From positions 3,720,001-3,784,000 of the forward strand of contig NZ_CP040128.1 of the NCBI RefSeq assembly GCF_007874125.1: a stretch of 64,000 nt of DNA. The letters are read 5' to 3'. This DNA is from Noviherbaspirillum sp. UKPF54 (GTDB taxonomy: Bacteria > Pseudomonadota > Gammaproteobacteria > Burkholderiales > Burkholderiaceae_D). A model generated the notes under the pieces. That model was not told the origin of the DNA, ran no database searches, and saw nothing but the letters and a program-made list of their open reading frames with translations. Shown here one piece after another: positions 6,160-25,346 of this stretch (position 1 is its first letter; each line of letters starts with the position of its first letter). The position numbers were made by a program, and so were the translations under genes.

Positions 6160-7026
6160 TCATGTGAATGGACGAATGCCTTTACACGAAGGATAAGCCA
6201 CGCAGCCCCAAAACGATTGGCCGGCGTGGGTTCCCTTCTTAGCCGATCGCTGCACCATGGCTTTGGCGCAACGAGGACACGATGGTGTGCCGAACGCTGT
6301 GCTCACCGTAGAATTAACATTGCCAACCGTTCGGTTGACAGCCGTTGCCTGTCGAGTCGCGGTCGCATGTTTGATCAGCTTCATCAACACTGGCCCGTCC
6401 ATCAGCTTCAAGTTTCGCCCCTGTGCGAACTCGGTTGCCGCATCGGTGAAGCGACCGGAAGTCACCACAAAGCCTCCGGAAGCGCCATGCGCCGCCATCA
6501 CACCGTACAGTTCGCGGACAACTTCGACACCGACTTTGTACGCTTTCCATTGCTTGCACTGCACGAAGAACTTCTCGTTGTTCTTGCGCAGCACCAGATC
6601 AACGCCGCCATCCGCGCCGTTGCCGCCGGTTTCCACAACCTGGTATCCCTGCAGCCGGAACGCTTCACCAACAAGCATCTCGAATTCGCGCCATGTTATG
6701 CCGTCCAATGTATCGGCGGTAGGGATTGCCGCCACATTGGCAATCAGCGCGCGGCGCTGCTTGCGCTTGCATGCAGAGATGACCGCACCGAACAGACACA
6801 GCATCGGCAGAAAGAACTGACCGTAGTACGCGAGCGACTGCCACAACATTCTTGATACCATTTGGCCGATCTGCCCTGGCTGCGCAGCCGTCATCGGTAC
6901 ACGGGCAGCGAGTGCATGCAGTACGAAGTAGCTTACGAGCGCCAGCGCCACCCCGCTCCACCATGGCAACATGGACACCAGATCAAGCAAGTCTTCCGCC
7001 GGACTGGAATTCCTTTTGCGTCCCAT
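6160..7026 (-). CDS. Membrane-anchored Mrr-type restriction endonuclease with zinc ribbon
   Basis: 288 residues; CAGGAG precedes the start. Two hydrophobic segments (about residues 23-40 and 68-86) anchor it in the membrane. An Mrr-type PD-(D/E)xK nuclease follows: WREFEMLVGEAF, then GADGGVDLVL (Asp near 143) and FVQCKQWK (Gln-x-Lys near 156-158). The last 40 residues have CPRC and a C-x(5)-C pair, like the zinc ribbon at the end of topoisomerase I. Family enzymes cut DNA, often modified DNA (type IV). It lies 55 bp downstream of a second Mrr gene in the same direction. Confidence 0.8.
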   Translation of the reverse strand: MGRKRNSSPAEDLLDLVSMLPWWSGVALALVSYFVLHALAARVPMTAAQPGQIGQMVSRMLWQSLAYYGQFFLPMLCLFGAVISACKRKQRRALIANVAAIPTADTLDGITWREFEMLVGEAFRLQGYQVVETGGNGADGGVDLVLRKNNEKFFVQCKQWKAYKVGVEVVRELYGVMAAHGASGGFVVTSGRFTDAATEFAQGRNLKLMDGPVLMKLIKHATATRQATAVNRTVGNVNSTVSTAFGTPSCPRCAKAMVQRSAKKGTHAGQSFWGCVAYPSCKGIRPFT

Positions 7027-7081
7027 CGCATCTCCTGGATATTGCGTCTTGTACGTGTCACGGTTTAGTGAAGAAATGCAG

Positions 7082-7987
7082 TTACGTTTGCGGCGTCAGG
7101 AAGTAGATCGGCGTCAGTGGCAAGCGCCGCCGCGCCATGTCGTCTAGTTTGCCGTAATGCGTAATCCATAAATCCACCAGCTTATCAACCGCGATCAATG
7201 TGACTTTTCGGCTTTCCTGCGCACGAGCGAAATCTTCAGCGTCTTTCGTAAAGCCGCCGGTCGAAACAAAGAGTCCAACGTCGTCATTGCCAATCAATGA
7301 CGCAAAAGACCGCAAACCTTCCACTGTCACCTTTTGGCTAATTCGCTTCACTTGCACTTTAATGCGCGGCGGCCGCGTACCCAGCGGATCGTTATAAGCG
7401 AGAATATCCACGCCCCCGTCCTTGCCCGGCGGTGAAATCCAAGCGACGTGATACCCCATCGCTGTCAGCAAATCGGCCACTAGATCTTGAAACTCATACG
7501 GATTCATGGCCTGAAGATACTGTTCGATTTCCGTCCATGCTTGTTCTTCGGCTTGCTCGAACGTGATACTGGACTCCTTTTCGCTCTCTTCTTGTCCAAG
7601 CGTCGATTCTTCCGAAGTCGGCGCTGCACTGGGACCCGGCTGGCTGGCTTTCCAAGCGTTGTACAACTTCACGGCTTCTTTGTAGAAGGCCTCGGGATCA
7701 GCGTACATGCCATACGCGGTCAAGCCGGTCGGCGTTAACGTCCATCTCCCCTTGTGTTTTAGCATCCACCCGGCTTTCACACAATCGACGGTGGCGAAAC
7801 GAACGATCTTTTCAAAGCGCCGCTCGCCGGTCGATTCGTAGCTGCCGCTTTCATACAAACTGAGCGTCACGCGGCTCTCCAATGCCTTCAGTGCGTCACG
7901 TGCCTGCAAACCTTCCGGCGTCTCTTTAAGCACGTCGAACAGCTCCCGTAACAGCTCTCCGGTGCGACGACGAGTAATCTCCGCCAT
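7082..7987 (-). CDS. Mrr-type restriction endonuclease
   Basis: 301 residues; GGGGAAAC precedes the start. Residues 1-90 look like the Mrr winged-helix domain that reads DNA (TLTPTGLTAYG near its end). A charged linker follows. The nuclease domain is in the C-terminal half: NPYEFQDLVADLLTAMGYHV, GKDGGVDILAYND and IKVQVKRIS hold the Asp and the Gln-x-Lys of the Mrr active site, followed by GLFVSTGGFTKDAEDFA. The protein is predicted to be soluble. Same strand as the membrane-anchored Mrr gene, so the two may form one unit. Type IV-like cutting of methylated DNA is known for the family. Confidence 0.85.
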   Translation of the reverse strand: MAEITRRRTGELLRELFDVLKETPEGLQARDALKALESRVTLSLYESGSYESTGERRFEKIVRFATVDCVKAGWMLKHKGRWTLTPTGLTAYGMYADPEAFYKEAVKLYNAWKASQPGPSAAPTSEESTLGQEESEKESSITFEQAEEQAWTEIEQYLQAMNPYEFQDLVADLLTAMGYHVAWISPPGKDGGVDILAYNDPLGTRPPRIKVQVKRISQKVTVEGLRSFASLIGNDDVGLFVSTGGFTKDAEDFARAQESRKVTLIAVDKLVDLWITHYGKLDDMARRRLPLTPIYFLTPQT

Positions 7988-10681: not shown

Positions 10682-11008
10682 ATGGGTGACGAAATTAAGG
10701 AAGCCGCCTTAAAGGAGCTTGCCGAAGCCAGCTCAATCAACGGCGTGTTGGTTTACGGGCAACACGGTGGATTTGGGCTTCGCGTCAAATGCGGATCAAC
10801 CGACAAAATGTTGATAACCGCGAAAGGAACTGCGCGTCTGTTTGGCTCGCTGGACAGCGCAATGGAGTTTCTGCGAAGAATGGAAATTTTCCGGTTTGAA
10901 GTGGATGCGTCAACATACAAGCGCGCGCTCCTACGTAGCCCCAGACCAGATCGCGCAGAGGCGCTCAAACAAACAAGAACTAGACCCACACAGAGCCAGC
11001 TATGGTGA
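10682..11008 (+). CDS. ParC-family partition-associated protein
   Basis: 108 residues. Motifs: SSINGVLVYGQHGGFGLRV, KMLITAKGTARLFGSLDSAM, FRFEVDASTYKRAL and RPDRAEALK. That succession matches the small ParC family seen beside plasmid and element genes. Its C-terminal codons overlap the first methyltransferase start by 7 bp (ATGGTGA), so translation is coupled. It probably sits first in a four-gene operon behind the twin palindromes. Whether it binds them is untested. Function in partition is inferred from the family name only. Confidence 0.6.
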   Translation: MGDEIKEAALKELAEASSINGVLVYGQHGGFGLRVKCGSTDKMLITAKGTARLFGSLDSAMEFLRRMEIFRFEVDASTYKRALLRSPRPDRAEALKQTRTRPTQSQLW

Positions 11009-12369
11009 AATTATCTGATACCGAACTTGCGCGTGAACCCGAAGGCGAAGTTGCTGACACCGCCCCTTCCATCACGCGTCGCAAGGTTCCAGCCAAACGC
11101 ACAACGACAAAAAGATCACAATCTCGCTCCGACTACGTGCAAATTTTCCGCAAAGCTGAGACTGCCTTGGGGAGTTGGAAGCCTTTATCAAAGGCCACTC
11201 CACAAGCACGCTATCAAGTAATCGATTTCTTCTCCGGCTGCGGCGGTGTTTCATTAGGCTTCGCGGCATTGGGCAAAGTTACTAAGTCCATTGAAGTCGT
11301 AGGAGGCTGCGATATAGATCCTGTGGCTGCAAACACGTTCGAGGCGAACTTTGGAGTTCCGTGTGTCGTGGCCGATATTGCAGAAGTATCGCAAAGCAAA
11401 ACTCGGATAAAAGGATTACTTGAGCAATATCCGCGATACGACCCAAGCAGGGAAACGATCCTTATCGGTTGCGCGCCCTGCCAGGGTTTTTCGTCACACC
11501 GAAAAAAATCGTGGGACAAGCCCGACCCGCGCAACTCCCTTCCGGCACGCTTCGCCCTAATCGCGAAGGAAATCAATCCGGTATGCGTCGTGATGGAAAA
11601 TGTGCCGGAAATGTTGTCGACGAAGTATTGGGATGAATTTAGTGCAGCCAAGCGGATTCTCGAAGAAGCAGGCTACATCGTTAAGCAATCAATTTACAAC
11701 GCTGCGACGTTTGGTGTGGCCCAGGAGAGATTTCGCGCAGTGGTCATCGCGATGAAGCGGGACTTTGTGCTACCGCTTCCGCCATTAACGGATCACTCAC
11801 AGTTTCGCACTGTGCGCGATGCCATTGGCCATCTTCCCGCCGTGGCAGCCGGAGAACGCACATACGCGGATTCGTTGCATTACTCAGCGAGCCACAAACC
11901 ATCGACGATGACGACCATCCGTGCGGTGCCGCCAAACGGAGGAAGCCGTCCGATCGGAGTCGGGCCTGCTTGCCTCGACCGCATCAAGGGATTTTCCGAC
12001 GTGTACGGAAGGCTATATTGGGAACGCCCTTCGATCACAATAACGCACTATGCACGTAATCCGGCCAGCGGACGCTTTGTGCATCCGGAACAGCATCGCG
12101 GACTAACTATCCGCGAGTGCGCGCAATTGCAGAGTTTCCCTCCTGGTTTCACGTTTACCGGGCAATCCGATGGAATTTATCGTCAAATCGGCGAGGCCGT
12201 TCCTCCGCTTCTCTCACTAGGTGTGGCCGCTCATGTGTTGAACGAGCTTAGCTTGGATCCACCGACGGCGGACGAGATTCAACAGAGCCCTGCAAGCATT
12301 GAGACGCCGGTCAGCAGCTCATACTCCAGTGTCATTGCAGGTATCAAGTCGAGCAGGTCTAAAAAATGA
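11002..12369 (+). CDS. C5-cytosine DNA methyltransferase 1
   Basis: 455 residues. All main C5 motifs are present in order: I VIDFFSGCGGVSLGF (about residue 73), IV with the catalytic PCQ at 159-161 (GCAPCQGFSSHRK), VI VMENVPEM, VIII QERFRAVVIAMK, IX RECAQLQSFPPGF and X RQIGEAVPP. A basic, Ser/Thr-rich extension of about 70 residues precedes motif I. The target-recognition region between VIII and IX is only about 100 residues. The 3' end overlaps the next gene by 4 bp. Target site unknown. Confidence 0.92.
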   Translation: MVKLSDTELAREPEGEVADTAPSITRRKVPAKRTTTKRSQSRSDYVQIFRKAETALGSWKPLSKATPQARYQVIDFFSGCGGVSLGFAALGKVTKSIEVVGGCDIDPVAANTFEANFGVPCVVADIAEVSQSKTRIKGLLEQYPRYDPSRETILIGCAPCQGFSSHRKKSWDKPDPRNSLPARFALIAKEINPVCVVMENVPEMLSTKYWDEFSAAKRILEEAGYIVKQSIYNAATFGVAQERFRAVVIAMKRDFVLPLPPLTDHSQFRTVRDAIGHLPAVAAGERTYADSLHYSASHKPSTMTTIRAVPPNGGSRPIGVGPACLDRIKGFSDVYGRLYWERPSITITHYARNPASGRFVHPEQHRGLTIRECAQLQSFPPGFTFTGQSDGIYRQIGEAVPPLLSLGVAAHVLNELSLDPPTADEIQQSPASIETPVSSSYSSVIAGIKSSRSKK

Positions 12370-13448
12370 AGTACACCTGCATTGATAGTTTCGCAGGCGC
12401 AGGTGGACTGTCGTTAGGTCTAACGAACGCAGGCTTTGATGTGCTGTTGAGTTTTGATTTCGACGCACACTGCATAGCGACGCAGAATCTAAACAAGAAA
12501 CGCTTACGCCATCCCGCAAGACAGGCAGACGTAAATGATTTGTTGGGTGGTGCACTACTGCGAGAGTTAAATCTCGAGCAAGGGGAACTGTTCCTTCTGG
12601 CTGGCGGCCCACCCTGCCAAGGGTTTTCGGTACAGCGCATCGGAAATGATCGCGACGCGCGGAACACCTTGGTCTCTTCCTACTTCAAACTGGTGGATGA
12701 AGTACGCCCTGCCTATTTCTTGATGGAGAACGTACCGGGCATCACCGGCAAACGCGGACGCTTAATCCTGGACAAGGAAATCGAAAGGGTCACAAAACTC
12801 GGTTATGCAGTGCACTGCAAGACGCTTGATGCTCAAGACTTCGGCGTGCCCCAGCGTAGGCGTCGAGTTTTCTTTGTCGGTGAGCGGCTGGACGGTTACC
12901 TTCCCACATTTGAATTTCCGGCCCCTATGCGCGGCAAAAAGATAACCGTCCGAGAAGTGATTGGCCACCTACCGCCGCCGCCGCTTGATGGTTCGGAACA
13001 TCCTACTATCGTCCATCATCGCTCCGACAAGCTGAGTGAGTTAAACAAGAAGCGATTAGCTGCACTCCCTCCAGGCAAGGGTAGGGATCATTTACCGCCT
13101 GAGCTCCTTGCGGACTGCCACAAAATTAGCTCTTCGATAATCGGCCATCGCAATGTGTACGGAAAAATGGCTTGGGATGAAGTAGCTCCGACTATCACGG
13201 CCCGATTCGATAGCTTCACGCGTGGTCTCTTCGGGCATCCCGAACAGCTCCGCACCATTTCGTTGCGCGAAGGGGCCCTGCTGCAAACGTTTCCGCAGGA
13301 TTTTGTGTTCAGCGGGTCGAAAGTGGACATTGCGCGACAAATCGGCAATGCCGTTCCCGTTAAGCTGGCCGAAGTACTCGGGCGGCAAATAATCTCGTGC
13401 CACTCAATAAAAGCAAAACAATATGACCTTTCAGACGCTGTCTCGTAA
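12366..13448 (+). CDS. C5-cytosine DNA methyltransferase 2
   Basis: 360 residues. Motif I is CIDSFAGAGGLSLGL near the N-terminus. The catalytic PCQ is at residues 83-85 (GGPPCQGFS), followed by FLMENVPGI, QDFGVPQRRRRVFFVGER, LREGALLQTFPQDFVF and RQIGNAVPVKLAEVLG. It is compact, with no long N-terminal extension, and differs clearly from its neighbour in its target-recognition region. The ATGA overlap with the first methyltransferase and a 26-bp overlap with the next gene point to tight translational coupling. Two C5 enzymes in a row usually mean an asymmetric site or two specificities. Confidence 0.92.
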   Translation: MKYTCIDSFAGAGGLSLGLTNAGFDVLLSFDFDAHCIATQNLNKKRLRHPARQADVNDLLGGALLRELNLEQGELFLLAGGPPCQGFSVQRIGNDRDARNTLVSSYFKLVDEVRPAYFLMENVPGITGKRGRLILDKEIERVTKLGYAVHCKTLDAQDFGVPQRRRRVFFVGERLDGYLPTFEFPAPMRGKKITVREVIGHLPPPPLDGSEHPTIVHHRSDKLSELNKKRLAALPPGKGRDHLPPELLADCHKISSSIIGHRNVYGKMAWDEVAPTITARFDSFTRGLFGHPEQLRTISLREGALLQTFPQDFVFSGSKVDIARQIGNAVPVKLAEVLGRQIISCHSIKAKQYDLSDAVS

Positions 13449-16400
13449 GTACCTCAAAGAATTAGAGCAAACCTTCCAAGCGAGTGTTACAGGAGGAGCG
13501 ACGCCGGAGCTGTCGTACCGCCCCGCGTTGGATGCGTTTTTGCGAGACTTAAAGGAAGAGATCTACAAAGATGGCATCGAAATCATATTCGAGCCCCGGA
13601 AGCAGCAAATGGCCGGCAGACCAGATTGGCGGTTTTATCACAAAACCAATCTCGGGGTGTACGGATTCATCGAGGCGAAAGCTCTAAATCCTGAGAACGC
13701 TTTGAATCCGTCGAAAGACGAAGAACAGATTCAACGCTATCTTGCACTTCAACAAAATCTAATACTTACGGATGGTATCGATTTTATTTTCTATCTGACA
13801 GCAGAGAACTGGAAACCGATCACAGTCTCATTGCTGCCGAAGCCGCTTCCGTCCACCGGTTGGGACAAGCTGGATCCGAATCCATTGTTGGAAGCTCGAT
13901 TCAAGCAATTTTTTTCGTCTCCGCATCAACGTGAATGCTCTGAGGAGCACTTAGTTGGCGAAGTTGCCGTTCGAGCCGTACGATTGGCCGAACAAATCGA
14001 GGAATTGGTTCCTTTGGACCCTGCCGCTGCGCTCAGCGAGAGCGAACAGAAAGTCATCAAGAAACTTCAGTCTCTTAAGAATTTTCTACAACAAAATCAT
14101 GATCCGTCACTTGCAGCGAGTAAGCCCTTTTCTGACTTTGTCGCTCAGGTGCTTTGTTTCGGTTTGTTGTATTCACATCGCTCAAGCTCACAGGGCGAAG
14201 TTACGCCGACAGAACGCTATATGCGCATTCACGAATATTGGATCGATGGCTTAGCAGGAAAAGTGGTCCCGCTTCGACCTTTTCAGGAATTAATTCTCCA
14301 ATTGAAGGACGAACTAGAGCCTAAAGACCACTACGAATCGGCTTTAAGCACGTGGTACGACGATTGCCGGCGTTTACTCTCATACGTTCGACTTACGACA
14401 AACCAGACGCAAACACCGGACTTCCACTTACTATTTGAGCGATTCCTCGAGAAATACGACCCGCAAACGCGATTCGACTTCGGCGCATACTATACGCCTC
14501 CCGCGCTCGCGAAGTTCACAGTGTCGGCGGTAGACCACGCCGCTCGCAAGGTTTTCGGAGAGTCGGTATTTACCTCCGGCAATAAGCTGATTGATCCATG
14601 TTGCGGCACGGGCACTTTCATCGAGCAGATGCTTGAATGTTTACCGGACGGTTCGTCGCCTCAAATTATTGGCTTCGAGATCCTGCCCGCTCCGTACGCG
14701 TTGGCTCATTACCGCTTGAGTCTAAAACTGGCAGCGAAAGCGGCTATCAAAAATCAAATCCACGTCTTACTTACTAACACGCTGAGCGACCGCTTGAATC
14801 TGCCGGTTGACGCCGAAGCGGAATCTCCTAATCGCTTTCAAGAGGAGCAGATCGACGCTCGAAAGTTTGCAAAACCGCCGATTATCGCGGTAATCGGAAA
14901 TCCGCCTTCCTCCGATTCCACAAAAGCGGAACATCAATTGGCTAAGGTCTACTCCGACATTGCGGAGCTGATCGAGGATTTTCGTCCCCCTCAGGAACAC
15001 AGAGGAACACGACAGAACATTCAAAAACAGCTTCGGAATGATTTCGTACGCTTTCTTCGCTGGTCTGCCGATAGGGCAACGAGGAGCGAACGCGGCATCA
15101 TTGCGCTGATTGTGCCCGAGTCTTTTCTGGAACACGGCTCCTATCGTTTTGCCCGTAAATGGCTGGCAGAGAACTTCCGCTTTATATGGACGCTGGATCT
15201 CGACGCCGATCTGCGCTCAGGCAGCGCAGGGGCCGGCCTTTTTAACACTTTACAAGGTCGTGCTCTACTCATCGCGGCCTTTGACGAATCGGATTCGTCC
15301 TGGTCTCCGACTACGATGAGATATGGATCTATCCGGAATTTGGCGTTGCAGGAAAAGAAGGACTACTTGACGCAGTCAATGACGCCGGAACGATTCGACC
15401 GCGTGTTCGACAAAGTCGTCGAATTGGATGCCTTATATAGGTTTCGGCCTAGCGAGTTTTACGACCCAGAGCTTTGGCAAAGCTGCTGGCCAATTTACTC
15501 GGCAAGTTCGAAGTCACAGCTCGCGAAAGGGGAGCATTCAATTTTCGTAAGGCATTCGTCGTCGTTAAAACTCGGAGCAACCTCTCTCTTGGTGCACGCT
15601 AATCACGCCCTTCTGACTCGACGCAGCAAGGCCATCTCCAAGGACGGAGTGCCCTTCGCCGAAGTGCAACGTGATTGGTTCTCAGGCCAAAGTAAGCCGC
15701 CGACCGAACAAAAGCTCAATGCATTGAAACCTTCCCTACGCAAGGCGGCAGACCGTAACAGTGCGACTCCTTATTTGCATCGGCCGTTCGTCAATCTTTA
15801 TGCGGTCCTTGACGAAGAAGTGTTATCCGCGTTGTCGTCGATGCCGGGAGGAGGGGCGCGAGCTCGTCCGGAGGTCCGGAGCGCAGTCTCAATTCAAAGC
15901 AATCTTGCGTTCACCATAGCTCCATCGAGGAAAGACATTGCGGAGGATTTGCATCGCTTTGTCTCTTTTTGCTGGGGTGTCCCCGACAATGATCTTTGCC
16001 GCCGTGGGAACGCGCAATTTGTGAGCAGGCTCTTTCCAAATTACAAGCCGGCGAAAGGAGATTGGGATAAGACGCCCATCCCGAACTTTGATGCTTCTTT
16101 GATCGGCAGCATTCCTAAAATCCACGGCATGGCGCCGGACGAGGCGCTCGTTTATTACAGTTACGCAATGCTCTGCTCCGACGCCTATTTGGAGGCGTTT
16201 TCGGGAGCCCTGTTTACGACGGCTTCGTCGCAAACCATTCCCCGTTTGCCTATTGCGGCAAACGGCGACTGGTTTCGGGAGATCGCTGAAAGCGGCAAAC
16301 GTTTGGCCGATTTGGAAAACCCGAAATCTTCTATTGGATTATCAAGCGTCAGACGAGAGCTGTTGGAACGCTATGAAGAAAAGGACGAAAAAAAGCTGCA

Positions 16401-16728
16401 TGGGGTCAGTCAAGTGGTTCAGGACGACGGAAGAGTCACGCTAAACTTGGTCGATGCAAACGGCGCGGCGTTGTTCTCGACAGATCCGGTGGACGCAGCA
16501 GTCGCCAACATTCGCATATCCGGCTATGCCGTGATCGAGGAATGGGTAAAATGGTTTTCCTATCGTTATGCTCGAGTGCCGCTTCGGAAAGCTACAATTG
16601 AAGAATTTTTGGCACTGTTATCGCGGCTTGAGCAGCAGTTAGATGAGATCTCCAAATTAAATCTGGTGATTGACCAGGTTCTGAGCCAACCTAAGGCATG
16701 GATTAAGTGCCCTTCACCTACCGTCTAA
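13423..16728 (+). CDS. Type ISP/IIG-like restriction-modification protein (nuclease + N6 methylase + specificity)
   Basis: 1101 residues. The N-terminus has a PD-(D/E)xK-like core: GRPDWRFY (Asp 68) and GFIEAKA (Glu-Ala-Lys at 84-86). A gamma-type N6-adenine methylase follows: DPCCGTGTF (391-399, motif I) and NPPS (493-496, motif IV, with Ser where Tyr is usual). The last 450 residues resemble the specificity part of type ISP enzymes (e.g. HRPFVNLYAVLDEEVL, FTIAPSRKDIAEDLHRF). There is no helicase domain, so it is shorter than LlaBIII-type ISP enzymes. It closes the operon and is convergent with vsr. The NPPS variant may lower methylase activity. Confidence 0.8.
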   Translation: MTFQTLSRKYLKELEQTFQASVTGGATPELSYRPALDAFLRDLKEEIYKDGIEIIFEPRKQQMAGRPDWRFYHKTNLGVYGFIEAKALNPENALNPSKDEEQIQRYLALQQNLILTDGIDFIFYLTAENWKPITVSLLPKPLPSTGWDKLDPNPLLEARFKQFFSSPHQRECSEEHLVGEVAVRAVRLAEQIEELVPLDPAAALSESEQKVIKKLQSLKNFLQQNHDPSLAASKPFSDFVAQVLCFGLLYSHRSSSQGEVTPTERYMRIHEYWIDGLAGKVVPLRPFQELILQLKDELEPKDHYESALSTWYDDCRRLLSYVRLTTNQTQTPDFHLLFERFLEKYDPQTRFDFGAYYTPPALAKFTVSAVDHAARKVFGESVFTSGNKLIDPCCGTGTFIEQMLECLPDGSSPQIIGFEILPAPYALAHYRLSLKLAAKAAIKNQIHVLLTNTLSDRLNLPVDAEAESPNRFQEEQIDARKFAKPPIIAVIGNPPSSDSTKAEHQLAKVYSDIAELIEDFRPPQEHRGTRQNIQKQLRNDFVRFLRWSADRATRSERGIIALIVPESFLEHGSYRFARKWLAENFRFIWTLDLDADLRSGSAGAGLFNTLQGRALLIAAFDESDSSWSPTTMRYGSIRNLALQEKKDYLTQSMTPERFDRVFDKVVELDALYRFRPSEFYDPELWQSCWPIYSASSKSQLAKGEHSIFVRHSSSLKLGATSLLVHANHALLTRRSKAISKDGVPFAEVQRDWFSGQSKPPTEQKLNALKPSLRKAADRNSATPYLHRPFVNLYAVLDEEVLSALSSMPGGGARARPEVRSAVSIQSNLAFTIAPSRKDIAEDLHRFVSFCWGVPDNDLCRRGNAQFVSRLFPNYKPAKGDWDKTPIPNFDASLIGSIPKIHGMAPDEALVYYSYAMLCSDAYLEAFSGALFTTASSQTIPRLPIAANGDWFREIAESGKRLADLENPKSSIGLSSVRRELLERYEEKDEKKLHGVSQVVQDDGRVTLNLVDANGAALFSTDPVDAAVANIRISGYAVIEEWVKWFSYRYARVPLRKATIEEFLALLSRLEQQLDEISKLNLVIDQVLSQPKAWIKCPSPTV

Positions 16729-17132
16729 TCCGTCAAGAATTTTATTAGACACTCATCCAGACGCTGCGGGTCGCGGAGTTCACACTCCCAAAGGACTAGT
16801 ACGCTCCAACCCGCGGCCTCTAGTGCAATACGGTGTTGCTCGTCTCTTTCCCGATTGCGCTCTAATTTTTGACGCCAAAATGAAGTGTTTGATGCGGGCA
16901 GTCGCGATTTCGGACACCCGGCGTGCAGATGCCAAAAGCATCCATGGACGAAAATAATCTTCTTTAACCGAGGAAAGACCATGTCCGGTTTTCCCGGCAA
17001 ATCGGCACGATGGAGCCTATAGCGGAAACCCATCTTATGTACGGCGCGCCGTACGAGCCACTCCGGCGTCGTGTCTTTCGCTCGGACTCTCGCCATTACC
17101 GCGCTTCGCTGCTGGCGCGAAATTCTATCCAT
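16725..17132 (-). CDS. vsr: Very short patch repair endonuclease Vsr
   Basis: 135 residues, the usual length. It has MARVRAKDTTPEWLVRRA, LPGKPDMVF (catalytic Asp about residue 50), IIFVHGCFWHLH (active-site His 63, 68 and 70) and the C-terminal VLVLWECEL. It nicks next to T:G mismatches left by deamination of 5-methylcytosine. The gene is convergent with the ISP-like gene, overlapping its stop by 4 bp. It serves the two cytosine methyltransferases upstream. Confidence 0.93.
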   Translation of the reverse strand: MDRISRQQRSAVMARVRAKDTTPEWLVRRAVHKMGFRYRLHRADLPGKPDMVFPRLKKIIFVHGCFWHLHAGCPKSRLPASNTSFWRQKLERNRERDEQHRIALEAAGWSVLVLWECELRDPQRLDECLIKFLTD

Positions 17133-17390: not shown

Positions 17391-19166
17391 ATGTATATTT
17401 CACGCGTTCAGATAAAGAATTTTCGGAATTTTGCTTCGCTTGACGTGCCGCTTTCTCAAAATATCGTCATGCTTGGGGCAAACCGCGCTGGAAAAAGCAA
17501 TTTTATCTATGCCCTGAGGCTGGTCTTGGACATAGTGTTGCCGGATTCTGCCCGCCAGCTCAAGCTGTCCGACATTTGGGATGGTGCCGATCTTGCTACA
17601 TCGCCAGGAGTCGAAATTCACCTTGACTTTGTGGAATTCGACGCCGATCCGGCGCGAACGACGCTCCTTACTGACTACCGGCTAGCTTCCGACTACAGAA
17701 CAGCCAGGTTGAGCTATGTATTTCGTAAGAAAAGCGAGGTCTCTGGACCGCCCCAATCAGAGGCTGACTATGATTTTAAGCTCTTCGGCGGCGGCGATGA
17801 GACGCGATCGTTTCGCACCGACCTTCGCCGTCGCATCTGCTTAGATCTGCTGCATGCGCTCAGAGATGCGGAAAACGATTTAGCATCATGGAGAGTTTCG
17901 CCGCTGAGGCCATTACTCGAAAATGCCGTTGCGCAAGTGCCGAGAGCTGACTTGGATGCGCTTACCGCAGATATTGCCAACGCAACGGATAGGTTAAGCA
18001 ACCTACCGGCTATCTCCGCATTGGAAACGTCTCTGCGCAACGATATTGCTGAACTTGCAGGCCCCATTCACGACGTGCGCCCGAAGCTTGGCTTTGCGGC
18101 AATGGAATCGATGCGGCTTTTTCGTTCGATTGGTTTTTTTATAGACGATGGAAAGCGCGGCATTGCGGACGCCAGCCTTGGTGCCGCAAACGTGACGTTG
18201 CTGGCACTCAAACTGGCAGAGTTCGGTTGGCGCCAGCAAAAGAATGAGAGGAACTACACAGTACTCTGTGTAGAAGAGCCGGAAGCGCACTTGCATCCGC
18301 AGCTGCAACGCAAAGTGTTTCAAAAGATCTTCACGGAGAAGACAAGCGAATCCCATGCGTTGCTGCTAACTACGCATTCTCCGAACATTGCGGGCATCGC
18401 TCCGCTGAACTCTATCGTGCTCCTAAAACCAACACCGGATCGCGGCACGGAAGCGTTTTCGCTGGCGGGCCTTGCTTTGACGGCCGAAGAGTTTGAAGAC
18501 CTGCAGCGGTATTTGAATGCGACTCGCGCCGAAATCCTCTTCTCAAACGGAATCCTTTTTGTAGAAGGCGATGCCGAAGAAGCTTTAATGCCTGGGTTTG
18601 CTGCAAGCTGTGGCCATAATCTGGACGAGCTAGGCATTACCGTCTGCAATGTCGCGGGGGTGAATTTCAGGCCATATGTCAAGTTAGCGGCGGCCCTCGC
18701 GATTCCATATGCGGTTATCACCGATTGGGACCCAATTGATCCCAATGCTCCACTCGGTCGTAAGCGCATATTGGATTTGTTCGATGCAACTCAGGAGATC
18801 CGAAACAATCCAGTGCTCGATGCGACCACCAAAGGTGCACTTGTCGCCAATGATGAATTGCTTCGCACAGAAATGGGCAAAGCCGGACTGTTTGTCAATA
18901 CGTCTACGCTTGAAGTAGAGATCGCTCAGACGCCGGCTTTGGTGAACAGTCTGCTGGCAGTTTTGGAGGAAGAGGGTTTCGGTGCAAAGAGAAAGCGCCG
19001 TCTAGCGGCATGGAAAGCCGATCCCAAAACTGTCGATAGCGAACAGCTACTATCCATGATTGCCGATGTTGGGAAGGGACGGCTTGCCGGCCGATTGGCT
19101 CGCAAGACTGCAGGGCTCCCTCCACCGCCATACATTCGTGCAGCAATCGATTTCCTGATTGCTTGA
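17391..19166 (+). CDS. gajA: Gabija GajA-like OLD-family ATPase/TOPRIM nuclease
   Basis: 591 residues. The ATG at 17391 follows AAGAAAG and opens with YISRVQIKNFRNF; a longer frame to 17322 is unlikely. Walker A is GANRAGKS (29-36). The ABC-like signature half has VCVEEPEAHLHPQLQRK, then LLLTTHSPNIA. The C-terminal TOPRIM domain has LFVEGDAEE (Glu 392) and ITDWDP (Asp 445, Asp 447), as in OLD nucleases. In Gabija, GajA tetramers cut phage DNA when nucleotide pools drop. The UvrD-like gene starts 6 bp downstream. Gene name given from the pair's architecture. Confidence 0.82.
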   Translation: MYISRVQIKNFRNFASLDVPLSQNIVMLGANRAGKSNFIYALRLVLDIVLPDSARQLKLSDIWDGADLATSPGVEIHLDFVEFDADPARTTLLTDYRLASDYRTARLSYVFRKKSEVSGPPQSEADYDFKLFGGGDETRSFRTDLRRRICLDLLHALRDAENDLASWRVSPLRPLLENAVAQVPRADLDALTADIANATDRLSNLPAISALETSLRNDIAELAGPIHDVRPKLGFAAMESMRLFRSIGFFIDDGKRGIADASLGAANVTLLALKLAEFGWRQQKNERNYTVLCVEEPEAHLHPQLQRKVFQKIFTEKTSESHALLLTTHSPNIAGIAPLNSIVLLKPTPDRGTEAFSLAGLALTAEEFEDLQRYLNATRAEILFSNGILFVEGDAEEALMPGFAASCGHNLDELGITVCNVAGVNFRPYVKLAAALAIPYAVITDWDPIDPNAPLGRKRILDLFDATQEIRNNPVLDATTKGALVANDELLRTEMGKAGLFVNTSTLEVEIAQTPALVNSLLAVLEEEGFGAKRKRRLAAWKADPKTVDSEQLLSMIADVGKGRLAGRLARKTAGLPPPPYIRAAIDFLIA

Positions 19167-19172
19167 TTACCG

Positions 19173-20957
19173 ATGCTTGATCGAGAGCTAGTTTATGCCG
19201 CGATTGCGGATATGCGGGAGAACCGGGAGCAACACGATGCTATCCACGAAATGCAGCATTGTGTTGTGCTTGCGGGCCCTGGAAGCGGCAAGACGAAAAC
19301 GTTAACAGCCGCAATTGCGCGGGCGCTATTGGATGATGTTTTCGAGCCTAGAGGAGTCGCCTGCATCACCTACAACAATGAATGCGCCTTGGAGCTTGAG
19401 GGCCGCCTGGCGAAACTGGGAATCGAACCAAGCAGCCGCATCTTTATCGGTACGGTTCACGGATTTGCCCTATCGCAGGTAATCAGCCCCTATGCGCGCT
19501 GCGTCTTGCCGGAACTGCCTCCAATCTTCCGTGTTGCCACCGAAGCGGAACGCCGCGGCATTGTGGAAGATGCATACAAAACCATCTTCGGGAGTGCTGG
19601 CGACCCGCATCAAATGTGGCGTTTCGCTGTTGAGAAGCGTTTGCGTCAGGTAAATAGAGACGCCCCGTCATGGCGCGGGCGCAATCCCGAACTGGCCCGC
19701 TTCGTCGAAGAGTACGAGCGGCAACTGCACGCACAGGGATTGATTGACTTTGATGACATGCCATTGCTTGCCTATCGAATGATCGCCAAACACCGCTGGA
19801 TCGCGGAGGCGCTCGAAGCTCGCTTTCCCGTCCTGTTTGTCGACGAATATCAGGACCTTGGCCATGCTCTACACGAATTAGTTCTAAAGCTTTGTTTTGA
19901 CGGTCGGATGCGGCTATTTGCAGTCGGCGATGTTGACCAATCCATCTATGCATTTACGGGTGCCAATCCACAGTTGCTGGCTGGCCTCGCTGAAAGACCT
20001 GATGTAAAAACTTACCGACTACGGTTCAATTATCGCTCCGGCACGACGATCATCAACGCCTCCATGGCAGCTCTTGGTGAGGATCGCGGCTATGTTGCAC
20101 CGAACGGTACGAGCACAGGAGTAGTGGAGTTTCGCGCGCACTCAGGAGACACACAGGATCAGGCCCGAGACATTGCAGAAAATCTGGTTCCCCAGCTAAT
20201 CGAGCGAGGCTTTGCGCCTGAAGAAATTGCGATCCTCTACCGAGAAGCGTCCCTAGGATCCGATATGGCCCTGGCATTAGCATGGATGAACTTGCCTTTC
20301 GTCCGCGCCGACAATCAGGCTTTGGTGAAAAGAAGCTCGCGGCTTGCGCGCTTCGTCGAGGCTTGCGCGCGGTGGGTAACAGGTGGGTGGAAGGAAGCCA
20401 ATCCGCTATTTCGCCGGCTGGCCGACGAGGCCGTGAACCTTGTTAAGGGGCCATATGCTACGAATGATGAACGGCACGCGGTCCATTTGCAATTAATTGA
20501 ATTTTTACAGAAAAGCATTGGTGTCGATGAGACGGCACATCTCTGGTTGATCCGGCTCCGCGATACGCTCATCACGCCATGGGCTCAAAGCGCGGCCGAT
20601 CTTACCGAAGACTGGAAAACGATCGACTTGATGATTGAACGGACCGCTTCATCCTCACCCAATGAAAATATGCCACTTGCACATTTAGGAGGACGCATTG
20701 AAGGCGGTGGACGCATCAACTTGAGTACGCTGCATAGCGCCAAAGGACGAGAGTTTGATGCAGTGATTCTGTTTGCGATGAACAGCGACGTAATTCCAAG
20801 TTGGAGGGATAGGACACCAGAGGCAGTCAAAGAAGCCCGGAGACTTTTTTACGTCGGTGTGACCCGCCCGCGCAAAGAGTTGCACGTCTGCTTTCGAGCG
20901 AAACAAAATTCGCCATGGGTCAAAGAACTTTTTGACCGGCTGCATCCCTCGTCTTGA
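19173..20957 (+). CDS. gajB: Gabija GajB-like UvrD/Rep-type helicase
   Basis: 594 residues, somewhat longer than the typical GajB. Motif I is AGPGSGKT (34-41), motif II is FVDEYQDLGH, motif III is AVGDVDQSIYAFTGANP, motif IV is FNYRSGTTI, motif V is TLHSAKGREFDAVIL and motif VI is FYVGVTRPRKEL. All superfamily 1 motifs are intact. The gene lies 6 bp behind gajA, the standard Gabija order. GajB is thought to sense DNA ends and hydrolyse nucleotides. An unrelated OLD plus helicase pair (e.g. an anti-plasmid system) is the alternative. Confidence 0.82.
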   Translation: MLDRELVYAAIADMRENREQHDAIHEMQHCVVLAGPGSGKTKTLTAAIARALLDDVFEPRGVACITYNNECALELEGRLAKLGIEPSSRIFIGTVHGFALSQVISPYARCVLPELPPIFRVATEAERRGIVEDAYKTIFGSAGDPHQMWRFAVEKRLRQVNRDAPSWRGRNPELARFVEEYERQLHAQGLIDFDDMPLLAYRMIAKHRWIAEALEARFPVLFVDEYQDLGHALHELVLKLCFDGRMRLFAVGDVDQSIYAFTGANPQLLAGLAERPDVKTYRLRFNYRSGTTIINASMAALGEDRGYVAPNGTSTGVVEFRAHSGDTQDQARDIAENLVPQLIERGFAPEEIAILYREASLGSDMALALAWMNLPFVRADNQALVKRSSRLARFVEACARWVTGGWKEANPLFRRLADEAVNLVKGPYATNDERHAVHLQLIEFLQKSIGVDETAHLWLIRLRDTLITPWAQSAADLTEDWKTIDLMIERTASSSPNENMPLAHLGGRIEGGGRINLSTLHSAKGREFDAVILFAMNSDVIPSWRDRTPEAVKEARRLFYVGVTRPRKELHVCFRAKQNSPWVKELFDRLHPSS

Positions 20958-21294: not shown

Positions 21295-21954
21295 TCACGA
21301 AAGCAGCCACCCAACAGTCCTCTCTTCGTGCGCAGCGGGCACCCAGCGGCCGACGGCCCGCATTACAGACCCGTGAAATCCTACGATTTGCGCAATCTCT
21401 GGCAAAACCCGCTGACCACCGTCCGAAAACGGCCTTGTCAACGTCAGCAACCTGGAACCGGAGGGGTCACCCTCCACGACGACGAGCGTCTTCTCGGGAT
21501 TCTTCCGTCGAAAGTGCGCGTTCCGGTGCAGATGCACCAGTGACGCGGGTGGCCAAGCGGAGTCGGTCGGCGCAGGATGAATTTGATTGACGCAGAAATA
21601 TCCAATGACGAAGCACGTGCCCGGCGCGATGCCTGGCCCTTGGAATCCGGCATAAAAGACCAAGTAGTCGTCTGGCTTCAACCGGAGCAGTTGCGAACGC
21701 TTCGGTTCGCTCGGCTCGCCATACGTGTATGTCTCAAACTCGGGATCATAATGCGTGTAACGGTGCGAGCGTACGTAGCTGGTGAGCGACACACCGCATC
21801 TGGCTGGCAGATCCGCATAGGTGACGCCGCGCCCTTCCGCGATTTCGGAAAACTCGGGTATCGGCACGTATTCAAACGTCCCGTCTTCAAAACGTGGAGA
21901 TAAGCTGCCACCGCAGCCGCGGTCAATACCGACACGTAGGAACAGAATGCTCAT
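21295..21954 (-). CDS. Nmad3-family protein (nucleotide modification associated domain 3)
   Basis: 219 residues from the ATG at 21954, which begins MSILFLRVGIDRGCGG; a longer frame to 22059 lies wholly inside the neighbour. The opening FLRVGIDRGCGGSLSPRF and FEYVPIPE are the signature of Nmad3. Other conserved pieces are THYDPEFETYTYG, LKPDDYLVFYAGF and GYFCVNQIH. In published domain surveys Nmad3 occurs near systems that modify DNA bases. The start overlaps the Nmad2 stop by 32 bp, so the two are translated together. Enzymatic role unknown. Confidence 0.75.
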   Translation of the reverse strand: MSILFLRVGIDRGCGGSLSPRFEDGTFEYVPIPEFSEIAEGRGVTYADLPARCGVSLTSYVRSHRYTHYDPEFETYTYGEPSEPKRSQLLRLKPDDYLVFYAGFQGPGIAPGTCFVIGYFCVNQIHPAPTDSAWPPASLVHLHRNAHFRRKNPEKTLVVVEGDPSGSRLLTLTRPFSDGGQRVLPEIAQIVGFHGSVMRAVGRWVPAAHEERTVGWLLS

Positions 21955-22636
21955 GGCTGCCGCCCCTATTGCTGGTCTGACTCGAACACGTGGAGCGCGC
22001 TGCTTTGCATCCTTCCGGCTCTTGCCACAGGCATGGCTTGCCATGGACGCCCGGCTCATACCGCTGATCGTGCAGAAAGCGCCGAATGTTTTCGAGATCG
22101 GATTCGGAACAATAGAATGTCCGGCCTTTGGATAGCGTGATGCCGATACTGTCCCACCCGCCGCGCGGAACCGGACAATTTCTGCCGAAGTAGTAAAAAA
22201 TGTCCGCGATGAGCACGTTCACCCCGCCTGTGTCATGACGAATAGTACTTAATGAATCATCATGCGAATCGTTTGGCAATTGCCGATAGCCGCCTGCCCC
22301 ATCCGAGTCGTAGATGTTGTCTCCGCACCGAAGAATCGAATCGTTGGCGCCCTTCAGCGGCTTCTTATGCTGGTACCGTGCATCGTGAAAATAGTCTTCT
22401 AGCCTCAACACTTCCCCGACACGCATCAGATACAGCAGCCCTGACACTGGAATGCTGACGCCGGCGCGACGACTGGTATGCACCAAATCCTGCGATGCAA
22501 ATCCGGCCACCCAATCGCCACGCAACTTGGTGCGTCGGATGGCCGGTTTGCACGTCGCCAAGGTTAATTGGCTGCCAAACGGGTTAGGCGCAAAACCGGT
22601 GTCGTGGGTCATCTTGTAAGCAATCAGGCGGCTCAT
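21923..22636 (-). CDS. Nmad2-family protein (nucleotide modification associated domain 2)
   Basis: 237 residues. The N-terminus AYKMTHDTGFAPNPFG, followed by TLATCKPAIRRTKLRGDWVAG and SGLLYLMRVGEVLRLEDYF, fits Nmad2. Further family parts: GDNIYD, VNVLIADIFYYFGRN and CPVPRGG. The last 30 residues are Cys/Ser-rich and run into the start of the Nmad3 gene. No ribosome site is strong at the start. It is first in the two-gene unit and runs against the Gabija pair. Confidence 0.75.
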   Translation of the reverse strand: MSRLIAYKMTHDTGFAPNPFGSQLTLATCKPAIRRTKLRGDWVAGFASQDLVHTSRRAGVSIPVSGLLYLMRVGEVLRLEDYFHDARYQHKKPLKGANDSILRCGDNIYDSDGAGGYRQLPNDSHDDSLSTIRHDTGGVNVLIADIFYYFGRNCPVPRGGWDSIGITLSKGRTFYCSESDLENIRRFLHDQRYEPGVHGKPCLWQEPEGCKAARSTCSSQTSNRGGSHEHSVPTCRY

Positions 22637-23079: not shown

Positions 23080-24249
23080 CTACCCTCTCAAGAGTTTCCA
23101 CAACAGTCGGCTACGTAAAGCCGACTGCATGTCGAGCAGCATACGTTCTGGGCGCCACCAGTCCGCCTTGTAGCGGTCAAGTTGCTGCTCGAAGCGACTG
23201 ACATGCTCGCAACCGCGGCCTTCGAGGTATAAGCGAGCGCCAGCCACACCGCGCCACCGTACCGCATCCAAGTACGCCGCAAACTCCCAGTCCTTGCGCA
23301 ACGCCGGCACATCCCGAATTTGCCACACGTCCCATCGGTCAAACGGAGCCGTCCATTCATCCAATACGTCCAGCGTCGGCAGGTCTTTGAATACGCGCCG
23401 TGCTTCAAAGCGGGTACGTTGCAACACCACTTCTGCGTCATCTCTAGACTTGGTGCGGTTACGCTCGAGCGGCGGCAATGATGTGGTCTCTCCCACCGCT
23501 TGCTTGAACGCGTCACTTGCTTGCTGGTCGTAGACGACACCATGCAAATCGGATGCAATCGAGCCAAGGTACATGGTCTCCACGCGGCCAACGGAATCGG
23601 TGGCCATGAAGTACTTCGATTGCACGGTGCAACGTCGTAACCGCACGATGAGCTGATTTATATCTTCCGGAATATCCACACACACGTCGCAACGGTACAG
23701 GCGCAACTGCCTCATCATTTCGGAGCGACGCCCCGGAAATAACATACGCAACAACCTGCCAAACCACTTGACGCGCTTCTCATCCATCAAGCTCGGGTTG
23801 AACGTTATATTCATGAATTGACGGGAATGAAGCTCCCGCGTTGGATTGACCCGGACCTCGATACTAAAGTTGTCTTTGTACGTCTTCACATAAACGTTCT
23901 TGAAGCCGCGTCCTTTGGCAGACCCCTTGTAGAGCTTGCCTTCCCGCTTCAGTCGGTCGAGAACGCTCGTAACAACGTTGCGTTCATCAAGGCTCACATC
24001 CTCCAGCAGAACGGCCAGCGTCAGTTTGTCGATTTTGATTGCACGCGGGACGCCCGCCGCCGGCACGGCGAGATCGTCCGTATCGGCATGCTGCTTCGGG
24101 ATGGCGATCTTGCGACGGGTCGTGTCTTGATCTGCGCTGGTATTCGTTGGCGAGAAAGACTTGGGTATTCCTCTCTTCGGCATTGGCATTGCTCGCATCT
24201 CTTCCATCTGCGTACTCTTCTTATTTACCGATTTCATCTGAACTGGCAT
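23080..24249 (-). CDS. Rolling-circle-type replication initiation protein (Rep_trans-like)
   Basis: 389 residues. The start at 24249 has AGGAG seven bases upstream. The first 70 residues are basic and disordered. The core has an Ile/Leu-rich strand set: QLRLYRCDVCVDIPEDI (about residue 205), YLGSIASDLHGVVYDQQAS, then RTRFEARRVFKDL (about residue 282). This succession is characteristic of Rep_trans/phage-type nicking initiators that act at double-strand origins. The exact catalytic Tyr is not pinned down. It is followed upstream by the AlpA-like regulator on the same strand, together forming the element's mobility module. Confidence 0.6.
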   Translation of the reverse strand: MPVQMKSVNKKSTQMEEMRAMPMPKRGIPKSFSPTNTSADQDTTRRKIAIPKQHADTDDLAVPAAGVPRAIKIDKLTLAVLLEDVSLDERNVVTSVLDRLKREGKLYKGSAKGRGFKNVYVKTYKDNFSIEVRVNPTRELHSRQFMNITFNPSLMDEKRVKWFGRLLRMLFPGRRSEMMRQLRLYRCDVCVDIPEDINQLIVRLRRCTVQSKYFMATDSVGRVETMYLGSIASDLHGVVYDQQASDAFKQAVGETTSLPPLERNRTKSRDDAEVVLQRTRFEARRVFKDLPTLDVLDEWTAPFDRWDVWQIRDVPALRKDWEFAAYLDAVRWRGVAGARLYLEGRGCEHVSRFEQQLDRYKADWWRPERMLLDMQSALRSRLLWKLLRG

Positions 24250-24602: not shown

Positions 24603-25346
24603 CTATGCTGTGTCTGGTTTCCATCGGCCGTCTCGATACGCGAGGACTTGAGACGCCTTCCAAAAGCTGCTGCGTCCGCGCTTGATCCGTTGCGGGAAGT
24701 GTCCGCTCTTCATCTTGCGATATATCGTCGGACGCGACTCATTGACGCAAAACATCACTTCGTCAATTTTTAGGTCGCTATCCATACCGCGTTCCGCTGC
24801 CTTGACCACTGCAATCAGTTTTTCGGCAAGCTCCTCGCTACGAGCGGTACGCTGGCGACGCGCACATGGCTGACCGGCTGGTTGCATATCAGCTGGATTT
24901 GATACGACAGGCGAGGATTGGCGCCGGCGCGTAGGTTGTTGCGCCATGGGCTTTGCATGGCTGGCACCGCGCGAGACGTGTGGGTGATCGAGCAGCTCAC
25001 CTCGAAATACAAGTAGTTCTCCTGTACGAATATCCCGGCATGACAGTCGTTGAAGGGACTTACCGGATGACTGCCCTGGTATGGTTCCGGCGACTGGCGC
25101 GAGCACAGTCATTCGCGCTGCACTTTGGCGCGTGGCACGGCACTCGCGATAGATCATGCCTCGCCCTCGCAAGACAATGTCAGGGGCACTGGGTTGGATG
25201 AAACGAAGCGACTTGTCGGCCGCTTCGCCAATGAATTGCAAAGCGTCGTGCGGCGCGCGTTTGCCGCCGATTTTCACCTGGCGGCCGTTGAATGCTGCTG
25301 CGCCTGCTATGTCGTCAGACTGCTTCCTTTTCGTGAGACGTTTCAT
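24603..25346 (-). CDS. AlpA-like excisionase/transcriptional regulator
   Basis: 247 residues from the ATG at 25346, which has GGAGAAAGG ten bases upstream. A start at 24947 (114 residues) would be nearer the family's usual length but lacks a ribosome site. The last 60 residues form an AlpA-type winged helix: KIDEVMFCVNESRPTIYRKM, then FPQRIKRGRSSFWKASQVLA. AlpA-like proteins control integrase or excision genes of phage-like elements. The first 130 residues are Arg/Ser-rich and unassigned. It heads the bottom-strand unit that contains Rep and is divergent from the 25523 gene. Confidence 0.65.
   Translation of the reverse strand: MKRLTKRKQSDDIAGAAAFNGRQVKIGGKRAPHDALQFIGEAADKSLRFIQPSAPDIVLRGRGMIYRECRATRQSAARMTVLAPVAGTIPGQSSGKSLQRLSCRDIRTGELLVFRGELLDHPHVSRGASHAKPMAQQPTRRRQSSPVVSNPADMQPAGQPCARRQRTARSEELAEKLIAVVKAAERGMDSDLKIDEVMFCVNESRPTIYRKMKSGHFPQRIKRGRSSFWKASQVLAYRDGRWKPDTA

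What the first reader, a model, noticed from the sequence alone, without database searches (positions are those of the whole stretch)
21295..22636. Nmad2/Nmad3 pair next to Gabija with no visible base-modifying enzyme
The two Nmad domains are linked by a 32-bp overlap and face the Gabija pair. Published domain surveys place Nmad proteins near DNA-base hypermodification systems, but no oxygenase, glycosyltransferase or thymidylate-synthase-like gene is in view. The pair may form a self-contained two-protein system that senses or processes modified DNA or nucleotides. I know of no experimental role.
Basis: partly seen in the sequence, partly recalled or inferred. Interest (0 to 1): 0.8.

Follow-up and report, generated by a model that had tools for sequence, protein, structure and literature searches.

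The report
Paired base-reader-like proteins in defence island
Two small overlapping genes beside an anti-phage system encode proteins that, in structure predictions, both resemble domains that recognise chemically modified DNA or RNA bases; in some other microbes they occur side by side or fused into one protein, so they probably work together, but what they do has not been tested.

Summary
Nmad3 (21295-21954, -) and Nmad2 (21923-22636, -) overlap by 32 bp and converge with Gabija. No hypermodification enzyme appears among 19 window proteins scanned, but two cytosine-C5 methyltransferases and a IIG-like methyltransferase lie 4.6-10 kb away. AlphaFold2 models of both (pLDDT 90.9, 94.4) match one PUA-like superfamily (YTH/EVE/ASCH/McrB-N) at middling scores, without sequence similarity. 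The pair recurs and is fused Nmad3-Nmad2 in four loci. None of 15 pair loci showed the thymidylate-synthase/kinase/MazG-like/UDG genes that accompany Nmad2 elsewhere. On plasmids Nmad2 instead follows a ThsB-type TIR gene. A C-terminal cysteine tail sits on Nmad2 when Nmad3 is its partner and on the TIR when TIR is. Nmad2 diverges faster than Nmad3. Best reading: a two-subunit modified-base recognition module used in defence, effector unknown; a nucleotide-processing enzyme is the main rival. New variant of a known kind; no experiment on this pair was found in the library searched.

The parts
21923..22636 (-). Nmad2 gene, 237 aa; PUA-like predicted fold; C-terminal cysteine tail (ends PTCRY)
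21295..21954 (-). Nmad3 gene, 219 aa; PUA-like predicted fold; invariant G9, D11, H68-x-D70-P71, D96, H147
21923..21954 (-). 32-bp overlap of the Nmad2 end (cysteine tail) with the Nmad3 start
   Evidence: sequence and ORF list
17391..19166 (+). GajA (Gabija), convergent neighbour, not shown to be part of the module
   Evidence: PADLOC PDLC00070 E 3.9e-219
19173..20957 (+). GajB (Gabija), convergent neighbour
   Evidence: PADLOC PDLC00117 E 7.8e-225
11002..13448 (+). two overlapping C5-cytosine methyltransferase genes (11002-12369, 12366-13448) in the same island
   Evidence: PF00145 E 2.9e-50 and 2.9e-60
13423..16728 (+). type IIG-like restriction-methyltransferase
   Evidence: PADLOC PDLC03610 E 9e-54; Type_ISP_C
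16725..17132 (-). Vsr mismatch endonuclease
   Evidence: PF03852 E 6.7e-28

Best explanation
Nmad2 and Nmad3 form a two-subunit module built from two remotely related PUA-like domains (the superfamily of EVE, YTH, ASCH and McrB-N readers). Most likely the complex recognises a modified base or nucleotide of invading DNA, with the faster-diverging Nmad2 contributing more of the specificity, and so takes part in anti-phage or anti-element defence. Shown here: pairing, fusion, faster divergence of Nmad2, partner exchange with ThsB-type TIR, the cysteine-tail rule, and defence genes near some pairs. Predicted from models: the folds. Inferred: physical complex, modified-base ligand, defence role. 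Unknown: the effector step; candidates are chemistry at the invariant Asp/His residues of Nmad3 or at the cysteine tail of Nmad2, or recruitment of another protein.
Confidence: 0.42

Rival explanations
1. The pair is an enzyme that processes modified nucleosides or nucleotides, either cleaning up phage-derived precursors or making a toxic or signalling nucleotide, as the ASCH-fold YqfB hydrolyses N4-acetylcytidine.
For: Invariant polar residues beyond what a reader obviously needs: D11, H68, D70, D96, H147 in 17 of 17 diverse Nmad3; D12 (19 of 19 with a letter), C29, D41, D106 in 21 diverse Nmad2. The conserved cysteine tail looks chemical. Nmad2 elsewhere sits with NTP-pyrophosphohydrolase (MazG-like), UDG, TS and nucleotide-kinase genes. 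YqfB precedent (PMC6972931, listing and abstract start seen).
Against: No catalytic motif of a known enzyme was identified and no pocket was mapped; 15 pair loci showed none of those nucleotide-metabolism genes by phmmer.
Confidence: 0.28
2. The pair is an accessory sensor or regulator of neighbouring systems, above all a WYL / DUF2779 / dual-AAA cassette, and in the window of Gabija.
For: WYL and/or DUF2779 near 7 of 12 bacterial pair loci against 0 of 10 solo Nmad loci with the same search; in L007 DUF2779-WYL-Nmad2-Nmad3 are consecutive with gaps of at most 25 bp; L098 has a solo Nmad3 near a Gabija-like pair.
Against: Gene order and orientation vary; the genes are absent from the window, L009, L117, L124 and L126. 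Pair loci had 7-21 kb read (window 64 kb) and solo loci 14-15 kb, unmatched for taxonomy.
Confidence: 0.16
3. The pair is a remnant or accessory of a DNA base-hypermodification system, as the domain names suggest.
For: Nmad2 without Nmad3 lies near thymidylate-synthase, O-methyltransferase and nucleotide-kinase genes in L100 and L138 and with a TIR, MazG-like and kinase genes in L123. An NMAD is in one legend with TS and 5hmdU kinase among validated defence systems (PMC13092281).
Against: None of those genes was found by single-sequence phmmer in 15 pair loci (window, L006-L010, L016, L018, L022, L117, L118, L124-L127). The Pfam summary of 99 neighbours shows no such family, but prints only 25 of 78.
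Confidence: 0.1

Closest known systems
EVE-HNH modification-dependent endonuclease VcaM4I (PUA-superfamily reader plus nuclease)
   Different: Nmad2 and Nmad3 carry no nuclease domain and are two proteins; pocket residues were not mapped.
McrB N-terminal reader domain of Thermococcus gammatolerans
   Different: No McrB GTPase or McrC nuclease among the 19 window proteins scanned.
YTH (Mmi1, YTHDC1, YTHDF2), THYN1 and ASCH domains, including the amidohydrolase YqfB
   Same: Same predicted fold superfamily (YqfB itself is not among the rows shown).
   Different: No sequence similarity; Nmad2 and Nmad3 recur as a pair.
Thoeris ThsB TIR protein
   Same: The small TIR next to plasmid Nmad2 matches PADLOC ThsB (L099, E 1.1e-89) and PF08937 (L101, E 1.2e-18), so Nmad2 takes part in a TIR-type arrangement elsewhere.
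   Different: The window pair has no TIR; of nine plasmid regions opened only L102 has a SIR2-family gene listed nearby (the gene table is incomplete).
NMAD-containing systems of DefensePredictor (PMC13092281)
   Same: An Nmad protein in a validated and in a predicted defence system (figure legends).
   Different: The legends list them with TS, dNMP kinase, 5hmdU kinase, UDG and others; the text seen does not name the Nmad family.

Membership tests
Pfam Nmad2 (PF18753) and Nmad3 (PF18754) | profile match above the curated cut-off | tested here: met
   170.3 bits against 26.1 and 89.5 against 27
PUA-like superfamily (EVE/YTH/ASCH) | PUA-like beta-barrel fold | tested here: met
PUA-like superfamily (EVE/YTH/ASCH) | sequence similarity to a solved member | tested here: not met
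   profile searches of PDB sequences give no credible relative
PUA-like modified-base readers | aromatic pocket that binds a flipped modified base | not tested
Type IV / modification-dependent restriction | reader coupled to a nuclease in the same protein or operon | tested here: not met
   no nuclease domain in either protein; the next gene on the same strand (23080-24249) has no Pfam match; Mrr-type genes at 6160-7987 are 13 kb away
Thoeris | ThsB TIR together with ThsA | tested here: not met
   no phmmer match in the window to two ThsB-type TIRs; no PADLOC hit to either Nmad
Base-hypermodification operon | TS-like, nucleotide-kinase, MazG-like or UDG genes near the pair | tested here: not met
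   no phmmer hit in 15 pair loci with the plasmid proteins as queries
Base-hypermodification operon | oxygenase or glycosyltransferase gene near the pair | tested here: inconclusive
   none among 19 window proteins; for other pair loci the Pfam summary shows 25 of 78 families
Defence system | protection against phage when expressed | not testable with these tools
   needs infection assays

The most novel reading that the evidence does not exclude
Nmad2 is the common part of a previously unnamed set of two-protein immune modules: one protein reads a modified base or nucleotide, its partner is exchangeable (Nmad3 or a ThsB-type TIR), and exactly one member carries a disordered C-terminal cysteine tail that is the reactive or attachment site. 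The Nmad2-Nmad3 version then works without any nuclease, TIR or cyclase, by a mechanism not yet described.
Probability: 0.2. Interest if true: 0.82.

Novelty: new variant of a known kind. Interest (0 to 1): 0.6.

Why it matters
It turns two 'associated domain' labels into a testable hypothesis: two PUA-like proteins that come as a pair or fusion in bacteria and archaea, in part in defence islands, and may read modified bases. The fusion, the partner exchange with ThsB-type TIR and the cysteine-tail rule give direct experiments. If the pair protects against phages with modified DNA, it would be a reader-only immune module with an unknown effector step.

Tried and rejected
Considered and set aside: (1) chance ORFs - rejected by Pfam, homologues and codon-position pattern. 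(2) Phage origin - tblastn of both proteins against 50,697 phage records found nothing; of viral-contig scans, one with Nmad2 alone and one with the Nmad3 alignment found none, one with the Nmad2 alignment found four distant loci, of which L088 has TIR-Nmad2-MazG-like-UDG. Nmad3 does resemble PHROG 34025, E 2.8e-14. Three phage papers that use the phrase concern Nmad1, an unspecified Nmad and Nmad5 (passages). (3) Pair as part of Gabija - no consistent link. (4) The cysteine tail as an effect of the 32-bp overlap or of gene order - rejected, because Nmad2 keeps it where Nmad3 comes first (L124, L125, L126) or the genes do not overlap (L006). (5) Common ancestry visible in sequence - hhalign finds none.

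Results against the reading: Nmad3 without Nmad2 in 63 listed haloarchaeal loci (L023-L085, by HMM) and in six of nine Pseudomonadota genomes with Nmad3. In L010 the Nmad2 cysteines lie before the last 8 residues; L127 (Nmad3 broken) and L013 (contig end) lack the tail. Of 12 TIR-linked Nmad2, 5 have one cysteine in the last 45 residues, none in the last 8. The tail counts come from related sequences and are not independent; the Fisher values printed should not be read as probabilities. Three of 120 listed Nmad2 proteins (under 195 aa) were left out of the tail count. K91 and H125 of Nmad2, invariant in 119 homologues, do not hold in the wider set. For the structure alignments one Nmad2 of 120 (P0061) and three Nmad3 of 120 (P0213, P0230, P0235) were left out. 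The pair matrix uses 14 non-window pairs inferred only from equal contig lengths in two listings, of unknown taxon, and a shortened Nmad2 for L009. The solo set of 10 for WYL/DUF2779 left out L098, L123, L128, L129, L130, which show none either.

Full report
What is in the window. Two genes on the minus strand, Nmad2 (21923-22636, 237 aa) and Nmad3 (21295-21954, 219 aa), overlap by 32 bp. Pfam: PF18753 E 4.7e-50 and PF18754 E 3.6e-25. They converge with gajA (17391-19166) and gajB (19173-20957). The island also holds two overlapping C5-cytosine methyltransferases, a IIG-like restriction-methyltransferase, Vsr and two Mrr-type genes at 6160-7987, and weak traces of a mobile element: a replication-initiation-like match at 23080-24249 (E 0.0045) and an AlpA/excisionase-like protein at 24603-25346. 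GC is 0.51-0.57 in stretches sampled between 1 and 26.5 kb against 0.64-0.65 to the right. So 'no base-modifying enzyme' is right for oxygenases, glycosyltransferases and thymidylate synthases among the 19 proteins scanned, but base methylation is present 4.6-10 kb away. Neither Nmad protein is hit by PADLOC or NCBIfam.

The pair recurs. The protein search gave 1028 Nmad2 and 414 Nmad3 homologues; among the 120 listed of each, 15 Nmad3 rows share their longest-contig length with a listed Nmad2 row, the window included, which suggests the same contig. The genome scan kept the best 80 of 159 loci. L023-L085 (63 loci, haloarchaeal) have Nmad3 without Nmad2 by HMM. Of the other 17 (L006-L022), six have Nmad2 adjacent (L006-L010, L022) and four have Nmad3 and Nmad2 in one protein (L013, L015, L016, L018; Pfam run on L013 and L016 confirms both domains), i.e. 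10 of 17. Of the rest, L011 and L012 have another domain without a Pfam match behind Nmad3, fused or adjacent, L017 has a different extension, L014 is broken, L019 and L021 start at a contig edge so that a partner could be cut off, and L020 is alone. Gene order is not fixed: Nmad3 comes first in L124, L125 and L126. In a draw of 398 Pseudomonadota genomes Nmad3 is in 9, Nmad2 in 6 and both in 3, own genome included (same size and handles, so taken as the same draw), adjacent each time. Both families are rare: for instance Nmad3 in 6 of 399 genomes of the order and Nmad2 in 3 of 60 relatives.

Conserved residues. In a diverse set of 21 Nmad2 (paired, fused and TIR-linked) the positions without exception among letters include D12 (19 of 19), C29, D41, G45, Y82, D106, Y149 and G151; in 17 Nmad3 (solo and haloarchaeal included) G9, D11, I32-P33, H68, D70-P71, G79, D96, F100 and H147. 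In the closer sets of 119 and 117 many more hold. This is more polar conservation than a passive reader obviously needs, hence the enzyme rival.

Divergence. The two identity matrices correlate (Mantel r 0.54, 0 of 2000 permutations as high). For the 20 unfused pairs without L022 the means are 0.44 and 0.67, lower in 188 of 190. The partners were largely inherited together and Nmad2 changes faster, or was replaced in L007-L010, where it is only 27-32% identical to the window while Nmad3 is 58-69%.

Neighbourhoods. Recognised defence genes stand near 5 of 15 pair loci: Gabija and restriction genes in the window, DndD in L008 about 6 kb away, an Hma/DUF1156-type methyltransferase and a DrmD/BrxH-like helicase in L016, one gene upstream of the fused gene, Macro, GmrSD_N and HsdR in L126, AbiEii in L117. 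Scanning was not uniform and no matched control was run; the bulk PADLOC scan of 99 neighbours does not say which protein matched. A WYL and/or DUF2779 gene lies near 7 of 12 bacterial pair loci (L006, L007, L008, L010, L118, L125, L127; not the window, L009, L117, L124, L126) and near 0 of 10 solo Nmad loci searched the same way (L116, L119-L122, L137-L141); stretch lengths and taxa are not matched, so this is an indication. In L007, L008 and L010 a dual-AAA ATPase gene is also present. No match to the TS, O-methyltransferase, nucleotide-kinase, MazG-like, UDG or TIR proteins of the plasmid loci was found in 15 pair loci (window, L006-L010, L016, L018, L022, L117, L118, L124-L127). The 99 neighbours scanned in bulk matched 78 Pfam families, of which 25 are printed, none in more than two proteins.

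Nmad2 has a second setting. Of 16 plasmid records with an Nmad2 match I opened nine (one search is an Nmad3 hit). In all nine, Nmad2 directly follows a small gene, annotated as TIR in eight and as hypothetical in L106, which is similar to the others (phmmer best E 1e-8). Members tested match ThsB (L099, PDLC00418 E 1.1e-89) and PF08937 (L101, E 1.2e-18). Genes annotated as NTP pyrophosphohydrolase family (I call them MazG-like), UDG, TS or nucleotide kinase are within about 4 kb in eight of the nine, not in L105. L123 and viral contig L088 show the same arrangement.

A cysteine tail. Among 117 Nmad2 homologues of 195 aa or more, 98 have a cysteine in the last 8 residues; among 120 listed Nmad3, 12; among 99 neighbour proteins 10; among 64 annotated plasmid proteins 3. 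Of 12 TIR-linked Nmad2 none has a cysteine in the last 8; there the TIR-position protein has one in 12 of 12 (nine plasmid couples, a second couple in L107, L088, L123). The fused L015, L016 and L018 end with cysteine; L013 is cut by the contig end. The tail is not explained by gene order or overlap. Its role is unknown.

Mechanism. The evidence best fits a two-subunit recognition module of PUA-like domains acting in defence, with Nmad2 as the variable part; the fusions make a physical complex likely. Whether it only binds or also reacts is open, and the effector is unknown.

Known or new. Searches of the held library for Nmad2/Nmad3, the phrase 'nucleotide modification associated domain', Nmad as a whole word (20 of 166 listed) and ThsB with Nmad showed no study of this pair in what was listed. 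DefensePredictor (PMC13092281; outline, section 7 and passages read) lists an NMAD in a legend of validated systems and another among predictions. The other three papers with the phrase are phage genomes with Nmad1, an unspecified Nmad and Nmad5 (passages). The EVE/DCD survey PMC7641849 holds no 'Nmad' (passages). The older domain surveys are not held, so priority for the fold assignment cannot be judged. I rate it a new variant of a known kind, interest 0.6.

Noticed in passing
L099-L107 (plasmid records), L123, L088: ThsB-type TIR gene directly before Nmad2, often near NTP-pyrophosphohydrolase (MazG-like) and UDG genes or TS/O-methyltransferase/nucleotide-kinase genes; the TIR-position protein ends in a cysteine tail in 12 of 12 couples looked at.
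   Followed up: partly
L007, L008, L010, L118, L125, L127: Recurrent WYL and DUF2779 (weak Cas4-like) genes near Nmad2-Nmad3 (L010 WYL only), with a dual-AAA ATPase in L007, L008 and L010; may be an unnamed defence cassette.
   Followed up: partly
L011, L012, protein P0213: A domain family without a Pfam match (IYKRTHSGDPD/IYKRTHEGDPD start, cysteine-containing tail) behind Nmad3, fused or adjacent, in the place of Nmad2.
   Followed up: partly
L023-L085 (haloarchaea): Nmad3 without Nmad2 in 63 listed loci; genes that look by eye like gyrA and gyrB lie a few kb away in 25 and 18 of them, so it looks like a chromosomal gene rather than a defence-island one.
   Followed up: partly
L022:970-4142 and L019:67-2598: In ANME-1/Methanophagales archaea Nmad3 (in L022 the Nmad2-Nmad3 pair) is followed within 1-2 bp by a dihydroorotate-dehydrogenase-type protein.
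   Followed up: no
window 11002-17132: Two overlapping C5-cytosine methyltransferases, a IIG-like enzyme and Vsr in one block, with two Mrr-type genes at 6160-7987.
   Followed up: no
L098 (Cupriavidus necator megaplasmid pHG1): Nmad3 without Nmad2, near a restriction-endonuclease (Mrr-like) gene, a Gabija-like AAA/helicase pair and avs1a.
   Followed up: partly
window 21295-21954: Nmad3 matches PHROG family 34025 (E 2.8e-14, unknown function), though no phage record matches by tblastn.
   Followed up: no
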